64,000 nt of DNA, taken from NCBI GenBank assembly GCA_023053685.1, contig JALIGW010000002.1, positions 170,529,430 to 170,593,429 of the forward strand. The letters are read 5' to 3'. This DNA comes from Diadophis punctatus similis (taxonomy: Eukaryota > Chordata > Lepidosauria > Squamata > Dipsadidae). A model generated the notes under the pieces. The model worked only from the letters and a program-made list of their open reading frames with translations, was not told the DNA's origin and searched no databases. Shown here in pieces: positions 43,265-47,948 of the stretch (position 1 is the first letter of the stretch; the number at the start of each line of letters is the position of its first letter). Position numbers and translations under genes: made by a program.

Positions 43265-43530
43265 TGTCAGAGTTACGCAATAAATCAGAAGCTTCACAAG
43301 ATAACTGCATTTTGCTGATTCAAATAACTTCTTTATAAGTAGAATAAAACATTAACAATACCACACTTTGTTTCAGATCACATGTTGAGATGTTTTCATA
43401 CTGGAGTATAATGGTGGACAGAGTAAACCACACCCTTCTTCTTGCTAAGTTTCTGGACATGCTCAATTAACACTTCAGCCAGATTGGCTGACTCAATCAC
43501 ATGGCTCTCCCAGTCATGAATATTCCAACA
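43265..43530 (-). repeat. 3' LTR of the copia element
   Basis: On the - strand it begins TGTTGGAATATTCATGACTG and ends GCGTAACTCTGACA (TG...CA). A TATAAAG motif lies at about 43331-43337 on the complement. The first 17 bases encode the last codons and the stop of Gag-Pol. Confidence 0.96.
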
Positions 43531-46500
43531 CTCCTCCCTTCATTACTGGGAGAGACATCAAACCTATTGGATTTAAACATTTCCTATAATGGACACCACC
43601 CAATGGTTTAGTCATCATGTCTGCTAAATTATCCTCTGAAGAACAATGATGTAAACGTATCAATTTTTCTTTTACAGCTTCCCTGACATTACAATACTTA
43701 ATGTCCACATGTTTACTTCTGTTCTTCACCCTGTCACCTGTTGCCATTTTTATACAAGCAGCATTATCTTCATAAACAGTTACAGCTTCATTTACATTTA
43801 CATTTAAATCTTGTAACAACTGTACATACCAAACTACTTCAGAACATAACTCAGACAATGCAATAAACTCTGCTTCAGCAGTTGAAATAGCAACCGTTGT
43901 TTGTTTTCTGGACTTCCAACCAATTAAAGCCCCTCCAAACAATATTACAATTCCAGAATTAGACTTTCTGGTTTTTACATCATTTGCATAATCACTATCA
44001 ACATAACATTTCAATTTTAATTCTTCAGTGACCTGTATTTGAAGACCTAAATTCACAGTTCCCTTCAAATACCTGAGAATTCTTTTCACACCCATCCAAT
44101 GCAACTTTGTAGGTGTAGCAGTAAAGCGACTTAAGATGCTCACTGCACAAGCTATATCTGGTCTGGACCACTGTGACAGATATAACAGACTCCCTATTGC
44201 AGAGTGATATATCTCCTGATCACAGGCTTCACTTTTGTCCTCACCCAAACTATTGTAAAAATCTGTGCTCATAGGTGTAGGAGCAATATTACAATCTTTC
44301 ATGTTATACTTCTCTAATAATTGTTCAATTTTTCTCCTTTGACTGAGAATATAACCACCTTTTTCAGTTTTTTGTATCTCTACACCGAGATAATTCTTTA
44401 TTTCTCCCAAATTCTTTAATTCAAATTTCTTTTCTAACTTATTAGCAAATTCTTTAACTTGTGATGCATCCTTTGCAATGAAACAAAGATCATCCACAAA
44501 TGCTAATAATAGACAATTCCCACCTTGTAACTTTCCAGTGTATATGCAACCATCAGCTTTGCAACTCTTGAACCCAAGACCTTTCAATGCAGTATCTAGA
44601 CAGATATTCCAATTTCTGGCTGACTGCTTCAGCCCATAAATGGCCTTGTTCAATTTATACACCATGTTAGGTTTTTTATTTTCATACCCTGGCGCTTGAA
44701 CCATATAAATTTCTTCCTCTAATTCAGCATTGAGAAATGCAGTGGTTATATCAAAATGCCAAATTCTATGCCTGTAAGCTGATGCTAATGCCAGTGCTAG
44801 TCTTATGCTCTCACCTTTTACAGTTGGTGCAAACACCTCATCATAGTGCACATTCTTTAATTGAGAAAAACCTTGTGCCACCAATCTTGCCTTATACTGT
44901 ACTTCATTATTGGGTAATACCTTTTTCTTATATACCCACTTACATCCTACAGCTTTCGTACCCTGTGGCAAAGTCACAGATGTGAACACTTCATGATCTC
45001 CCATGGATTTCATCTCTTTATCCATGGCTTCCTTCCACTTTTCTTGTTCAACTTTTGGTAATGCCAATACTACCTTATAGTTTCTTGGCTCATACCACAC
45101 ATTACACACTTTAACTTTACTGGCAGAATACCTGTCTGGCGGAACCCCTCTGTTCCTACGCTCTGACCTACGTGGCATTGCCTGTACTTGTGTTTCAAGC
45201 TTTTCTGTCTTCATATCTTGTTCAGACTCTCCTCCCTGAACATAGACACCTTCAGTAAATGATTCACCATCATTAAATGAGTTATTGTCACTAAGTGGAT
45301 CACCGTCACTAAGCGGATCACCACTAAGTGATTCACCATCATTAAATGAGTTATTGTCACTAAGTGGATCACCATCACTAAGCGGATTAAGTGAGACATT
45401 TTTAGAATTTGCATCAATTCTGTTCCAATTTTGTTCTGCAAAACTAGCAGACCTTGAAATTACTATCCTTTTACTTCCATCGCTAAAGCGATACCCTTTT
45501 GAGCCTGGCTCATAGCCCACAAATCTGAGCTTTCTAGCCTTTTGTTGTCCCTTTCTTCTGATTGCCTTTGGAATATGTACCCATGCAGTACTTCCAAATA
45601 TTTTTAAATGTGCTAGAGAAGGCTTTCTCCCATATAGCATTGCATATGGAGTATTATTGATGGATGAACTCCACAACCTATTAACTAAATAATTGGCAGT
45701 CAGTATGGCTTCACCCCAATATGACCTGCTCATACCAGAATCCTCCAGTAATGAGTCTTTCATTGTTTGCAAAACACCATTCCTCCTTTCAGCCACTCCG
45801 TTCTCCCCCGGTGTGTAAGGATTTGTGCACCTGTGTCTTATTCCCAATTGTCTCAACCATTGTTGAAAATTTGTTGACATAAACTCAGAACCTCTGTCAG
45901 TTTGCAACTGACATACCTGTTGTTTGTACCTTCTCTCTACAAAGCTTAACCATTGCTTAAATTGCTGTAGCACCTCTGTTTTACTCTTAAGTAAGTAGCA
46001 AAACCCAAACCTGCTGTAGTCATCCACAATGACCAGCGCATACTTTGCTCCTCCCAAACTGGCTTGCATAGGCCCAATTAAATCAGCATGAACCAGTTCT
46101 AGAGCTTTTGTGGTTTGTCTTGTGCTAAACTTGCTAACTGGGAATGCTTTGGATTTTGATGCTTTACATACTGCACAATCCAAATATGCCTTACATCCCT
46201 TCAAATCTAATCCTTCTGCAAATTCTTTCATTTGTTGAACAACCTTAAAATTAGCATGACCAAGTCGTCTGTGCAGAAGATGAACACATGAATTATGTTC
46301 TGCTACATTTTTAAATGTCTGGGAACAATGTGGGACCTTTTGTCCCTGCAATACATAAAGATTATCCTCTTTTATGCCCTGTGCACAAACAATCCCATTT
46401 CTTTGGATGATACACTTTCCATTAACAAATATGGTTTCATAACTTTGCTTGTCTAAACTAGACACACTTAACAAATTATGCTCCATTTCAGGTACACATA

Positions 46501-47668: not shown

Positions 47669-47682
47669 CTGGGCCCATAACC
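47669..47682 (-). other. Copia primer-binding site, matching the anticodon arm of initiator tRNA-Met
   Basis: On the - strand GGTTATGGGCCCAG begins right after the 5' LTR. Its complement CTGGGCCCATAACC is the anticodon stem-loop of eukaryotic initiator tRNA-Met, including CAU. Priming from an internal tRNA fragment rather than the 3' end is known for Drosophila copia. Confidence 0.9.
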
Positions 47683-47948
47683 TGTCAGAGTTACGCAATA
47701 AATCAGAAGCTTCACAAGATAACTGCATTTTGCTGATTCAAATAACTTCTTTATAAGTAGAATAAAACATTAACAATACCACACTTTGTTTCAGATCACA
47801 TGTTGAGATGTTTTCATACTGGAGTATAATGGTGGACAGAGTAAACCACACCCTTCTTCTTGCTAAGTTTCTGGACATGCTCAATTAACACTTCAGCCAG
47901 ATTGGCTGACTCAATCACATGGCTCTCCCAGTCATGAATATTCCAACA
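47683..47948 (-). repeat. 5' LTR of the copia element
   Basis: Identical in length and sequence to the 3' LTR. It should hold the promoter for the element; a TATAAAG motif is present about 70 bases before its 3' edge on the - strand. Confidence 0.96.

What the first reader, a model, noticed from the sequence alone, without database searches (positions are those of the whole stretch)
43265..47948. Structurally complete, apparently newborn Ty1/copia element in an amniote
Identical 266-bp LTRs, an intact 1350-residue Gag-Pol with all catalytic motifs, PBS and PPT in place. Copia elements are rare and mostly dead in amniotes. Identity of the LTRs means few or no substitutions since insertion, so this lineage was probably active very recently in this species.
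Basis: partly seen in the sequence, partly recalled or inferred. Interest (0 to 1): 0.88.

Follow-up and report, generated by a model that had tools for sequence, protein, structure and literature searches.

The report
Intact, young copia retrotransposon in snake
This is a complete and recently inserted jumping gene of the Ty1/copia type in what looks like snake DNA; it is structurally fit to move, but young copia elements in snakes have already been reported, so it adds a member to a known kind.

Summary
43265-47948 (minus strand) is a full-length Ty1/copia element: two 266-bp LTRs identical at 266 of 266 positions, one open 1350-residue Gag-Pol frame with copia domain order, a 14-nt PBS matching an internal (half-tRNA-type) stretch of initiator tRNA-Met, and a PPT. 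It sits in the (TTA)n tail of a CR1 LINE; the repeat phase fits the usual 5-bp duplication but also 2 or 8. The host is a squamate, most likely a colubroid snake. 'Newborn' is too strong: the LTRs bound the age at about 1.2 to 8 My, by rate. 'Rare and mostly dead in amniotes' does not hold for snakes: copia insertions differing by one nucleotide sit in two corn-snake colour genes, and copia has expanded in hydrophiines. RT-RNase H groups with a lizard copia and two unnamed proteins, 100/100; nothing points to a recent jump from insects or plants, nor excludes it. Copy number in the host is untested: the genome search did not complete 11 of 11 times. New member of a known kind.

The parts
43265..47948 (-). 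full-length Ty1/copia element, 4684 bp
47683..47948 (-). 5' LTR, 266 bp; TG...CA ends; a TATAAA stands at about LTR position 194
43265..43530 (-). 3' LTR, 266 bp, identical to the 5' LTR
47669..47682 (-). primer binding site, 14 nt, complement of tRNA-iMet nt 26-39 (anticodon region)
   Evidence: tRNA sequence recalled
43531..43541 (-). polypurine tract GAAGGGAGGAG, within the end of the coding frame
43514..47566 (-). Gag-Pol ORF, 1350 aa: gag 27-187, zinc knuckle 255-268, protease Asp 302, integrase core 487-586, RT 859-1100, RNase H Asp 1190, Glu 1231, Asp 1267; the stop lies inside the 3' LTR
45253..45387 (-). in-frame 69-bp tandem duplication in the linker between integrase and RT; copies differ at 3 of 66 positions
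43185..43264 (.). (TTA)n tract, 80 bp, left part of the target
47949..48048 (.). (TTA)n tract, 100 bp, right part of the target
43039..43184 (+). 3' end of a CR1 LINE whose (TTA)n tail holds the insertion; 43039-43200 is 93.8% identical to 53246-53407

Best explanation
A full-length, potentially autonomous Ty1/copia LTR retrotransposon, inserted within the last few million years at most into the (TTA)n tail of a CR1 LINE in a squamate, most likely snake, genome. Mechanism, inferred from the family: polymerase II transcription from the LTR; one Gag-Pol polyprotein that forms an intracellular particle; reverse transcription primed by a 5' half (nt 1-39) of initiator tRNA-Met; second strand from the PPT; integration by its own integrase with a 5-bp target duplication. 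The anatomy is shown; expression, particle formation and present mobility are inferred.
For: Identical LTRs; open 1350-aa frame; copia domain set and order; catalytic residues kept; gag matches the Drosophila copia VLP protein in the PDB, 8s41 E=3.2e-6 (host fly recalled); 14-nt PBS; TSD phase compatible with 5 bp; RT-RNase H clade with Podarcis lilfordi copia, 100/100. Host: the CR1 ORF at 53327-55258 has its highest identity among the 120 listed rows to a protein of the snake Erythrolamprus reginae, 70% over 89%; (AATAG)13.6 at 40998-41065 is the motif expanded in colubroid snakes (PMC6050309, passages).
Against: One copy in one window; host copy number, transcripts and polymorphism untested. 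LTR identity can also follow gene conversion or misassembly. No AATAAA, ATTAAA or AATAAT in the LTR. No listed protein above 48% identity in RT-RNase H, so no close relative for a selection test. By score, the CR1 search ranks mostly bird proteins above the snake one, and the AATAG array is a single locus.
Confidence: 0.9

Rival explanations
1. An older insertion whose LTRs were made identical again by gene conversion, so that it only looks young.
For: LTR identity alone cannot exclude it.
Against: The 1350-codon frame is open and its catalytic residues are kept, and the (TTA)n tract is perfect on both sides; an old copy would be expected to show stops or frameshifts.
Confidence: 0.05
2. Assembly artefact or contaminant: the element does not belong at this place or in this genome.
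For: Identical LTRs and long microsatellite tracts are places where assemblies can fail; no reads could be examined.
Against: The LTR ends, PBS, PPT and target phase are consistent with a real integration into a CR1 tail, and the element groups with a lizard copia.
Confidence: 0.03
3. The element belongs to the same family as the published corn-snake copia (OCA2, CLCN2), as a copy with a shorter 5' side.
For: Measured from the 3' end, RT lies at 1029-1751 there and 1003-1728 here, integrase at 2490-2837 and 2545-2844, gag at 3828-4160 and 3742-4224.
Against: 5832 against 4684 bp; the positions come from different domain models; the sequences were not compared; the authors report copies only in Pantherophis and Pituophis among the genomes they searched.
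Confidence: 0.3
4. A recent horizontal transfer into snakes from a non-squamate donor.
For: No close relative was found (best 48%), and two of the three nearest rows bear no host name.
Against: The only named near relative is a lizard element, in a clade with 100/100 support, and the ant, pseudoscorpion and whipworm rows of the next clade lie further out.
Confidence: 0.08

Closest known systems
Corn-snake copia of OCA2 (amelanistic) and CLCN2 (stripe); PMC4657000 and PMC11948899 (passages and one section)
   Same: Ty1/copia in a snake, young, near-identical copies; domain positions measured from the 3' end are similar up to gag.
   Different: 5832 against 4684 bp, the excess lying beyond gag on the 5' side. 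Sequence identity not tested, so whether they are one family is open.
Podarcis lilfordi 'Retrovirus-related Pol polyprotein from transposon TNT 1-94' (P0078)
   Same: Same clade in the RT-RNase H tree, 100/100; both proteins carry a KGGVL stretch close to the C-terminus.
   Different: About 46-47% identity in RT-RNase H and 28.5% in gag: a different family.
Drosophila copia (genus Hemivirus)
   Same: Half-tRNA-type PBS (recalled for copia; genus rule in PMC8515867, whole text); gag matches the copia VLP protein.
   Different: Only a distant gag match was found (E=3.2e-6); no row named as Drosophila copia was in the tree.

Membership tests
Ty1/copia (Pseudoviridae) | two LTRs around gag-pol, with integrase before RT | tested here: met
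Ty1/copia (Pseudoviridae) | copia-type reverse transcriptase (RVT_2) | tested here: met
   PF07727 E=5.7e-73; RVT_1 only 5.6e-4, below its cut-off
[quoted passage not shown]
   definition; tRNA sequence recalled
Ty1/copia (Pseudoviridae) | 5-bp target-site duplication (recalled) | tested here: inconclusive
   microsatellite target; of the lengths 0-9 the phase allows 2, 5 and 8
Ty1/copia (Pseudoviridae) | intracellular particles and transposition | not testable with these tools
   needs cells
[quoted passage not shown]
   PBS complements the anticodon region, nt 26-39, of tRNA-iMet (tRNA recalled); rule. Sequence match only; the primer itself was not shown.
Hemivirus | grouping with named hemiviruses in a tree | not tested
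   no named hemivirus in the tree
Corn-snake copia family | the authors' criterion: at least 5000 of 5832 bp at 95% identity | not tested
   sequence not available here; at 4684 bp the element could not reach 5000 bp
Sirevirus | plant host; usually an env-like ORF after gag-pol | tested here: not met
   gag-pol ends inside the 3' LTR; host reads as squamate; rule

The most novel reading that the evidence does not exclude
A second, distinct copia family that is mobile now in snakes, beside the published corn-snake one, and that tends to enter the long microsatellite tails that CR1 LINEs have seeded in snake genomes.
Probability: 0.12. Interest if true: 0.55.

Novelty: new member of a known kind. 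Interest (0 to 1): 0.3.

Why it matters
Intact young copies are the source of insertions like those in the corn-snake pigment and pattern genes. If this family proves polymorphic, it would be a natural insertional mutagen and a marker set in its snake. The insertion inside a CR1-linked microsatellite joins two features for which snake genomes stand out. One copy on its own is ordinary.

Tried and rejected
Copy number in the host: the genome search 'own' with the LTR did not complete in 11 of 11 tries. A scan of viral contigs gave 1 pattern match and 0 relatives. Rfam at gathering scores gave 0 matches in the window. A literature search for an early survey of copia in amphibians and reptiles gave 186 papers; none of the 20 listed titles concerns copia. 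A search on half-tRNA priming led to the Pseudoviridae profile. Passages on copia in frogs and on snake repeats were seen and not needed.

Horizontal transfer was weighed and is not favoured, but only one of the three nearest rows bears a name. Plant proteins head the table by E-value at 35-41% identity, yet lie outside the window's clades in the tree.

In the tree, 52 of the 155 proteins that matched the RT-RNase H query (of 165 given) were used: named rows and a picked set of unnamed ones whose match spans at least 330 residues, mainly the best-scoring; the rest were left out. In one search five integrase site numbers were off by one; one search gives the right ones. One search failed on a search term with a slash. 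No structure was predicted.

Full report
What is there. The stretch 43265-47948 is a complete LTR retrotransposon on the minus strand. Its two 266-bp repeats are identical at every position and have TG...CA ends. Between them lies one frame of 1350 codons, from an ATG at 47566 to a stop at 43514-43516, so that the frame ends 17 nt inside the 3' LTR. The leader between the 5' LTR and the ATG is 116 nt. The first 14 nt after the 5' LTR complement nt 26-39 of initiator tRNA-Met (tRNA sequence recalled); [quoted passage not shown] A purine run, GAAGGGAGGAG, abuts the 3' LTR.

The protein. Pfam gives Retrotran_gag_2, Pol_BBD, gag_pre-integrs, rve, SH3_retrovirus and RVT_2, with integrase before RT. 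The zinc knuckle, protease Asp, integrase HHCC and D-D-E, the RT aspartates and the RNase H residues are present. Against ten relatives they agree wherever a relative has a residue, except for Glu at the protease Asp in P0125 and Gly at the fourth RNase H Asp in P0081. The gag region matches the copia VLP protein in the PDB (8s41 E=3.2e-6, 8vvw E=4.2e-5). An in-frame 69-bp tandem duplication in the linker between integrase and RT has copies that differ at 3 of 66 positions; as the LTRs do not differ at all, it is probably older than this insertion.

The insertion site. On the left lie the last 26 codons and the 3' UTR of a CR1 LINE, 93.8% identical over 162 nt to the 3' end of the longer CR1 at 53246-53407. 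The LINE's name rests on recall and on the named relatives of its ORF; Pfam gives RVT_1 only. Its (TTA)n tail runs for 80 bp up to the element and goes on for 100 bp on the other side. If the tract was unbroken before insertion, the phase on the two sides permits duplications of 2, 5 or 8 bp and excludes 0, 1, 3, 4, 6, 7 and 9. The 5 bp usual for copia (recalled) fits.

The host. Among the 120 listed of 7816 hits, the ORF of the CR1 at 53327-55258 has its highest identity to a protein of the colubroid snake Erythrolamprus reginae (70% over 89%). The rows ranked above it by score are mostly stork proteins, with other birds, turtles, Podarcis muralis (66%) and unnamed rows, at 46-66%. The window holds a perfect (AATAG)13.6 array, a motif with an 87.7-fold increase in colubroid snakes against other squamates (PMC6050309, passages). 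A colubroid snake is the most likely host; the species is not known, and neither line is proof alone.

Age. Zero differences in 266 sites give a 95% upper bound of 1.2 My at 4.71e-9 per site per year (rate in PMC10709897, passage), 2.35 My at 2.4e-9 and 8.06 My at 0.7e-9 (the last two rates are my assumptions). Recent, but not shown to be newborn.

Relatives. The whole-protein search scored 5039 candidates and found 45 below E=0.001, the best at 38% identity. The RT-RNase H search scored only the 7986 candidates sharing most words and listed 120 of 5463; none of the listed rows exceeds 48%. P0062 (48%), P0001 (46%) and the lizard P0078 (47%) form one clade with the window, support 100/100, in a tree of 53 rows; the next clade out, 14 rows at 100/99, adds ten rows, among them ant, pseudoscorpion and whipworm proteins (common names recalled). 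This is compatible with long residence in squamates, but only one of the three nearest rows bears a name.

Against what is known. Copia in snakes is not dead. The amelanistic corn-snake allele is a 5832-bp copia insertion in OCA2 (PMC4657000, passages). The stripe allele carries one in CLCN2 that differs by one nucleotide, and the corn-snake assembly holds 85 copies by the authors' criterion; of the other snakes they searched, only Pantherophis species and Pituophis catenifer had it (PMC11948899, passages and one section). Copia is described as expanding, and among the expressed elements, in hydrophiines (PMC8872380, passages), and with Gypsy as the main LTR expansion in four sea-snake assemblies (PMC10709897, passages). 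Measured from the 3' end, the corn-snake layout is close to that of the window element up to gag, with the 1.1-kb difference on the 5' side; the positions come from different domain models, and whether they are one family could not be tested.

What could not be done. The search of the window's own genome did not complete in 11 of 11 tries, so copy number, sister copies and activity in this host remain open. Whether the insertion into a CR1 tail reflects a preference cannot be told from one copy.

Noticed in passing
53327-55258 (-): A CR1-type LINE with an open 643-aa RT-containing frame and a short (TTA)n tail; the listed protein of highest identity is from a snake.
   Followed up: partly
25439-26522 (+): A diverged copy of the same LINE, 81% identical over 1132 aligned positions to 53263-54394.
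   Followed up: no
40998-41065: Perfect (AATAG)13.6 microsatellite, the motif expanded in colubroid snakes.
   Followed up: partly
45253-45387: In-frame 69-bp tandem duplication, about 23 residues, acidic, within the integrase-RT linker of the copia ORF.
   Followed up: partly
1771-1991, 6819-7043, 30657-30817, 50946-51189, 60952-61202: A dispersed repeat of about 160-250 bp, five places in the window, 75-93% alike in the pairs listed; SINE-like in size.
   Followed up: no
9022-9308: 41-bp tandem repeat, 7.0 copies, 90% matches.
   Followed up: no
14001-16000: G+C-rich stretch (0.565 against 0.392 for the window) with several overlapping long frames.
   Followed up: no
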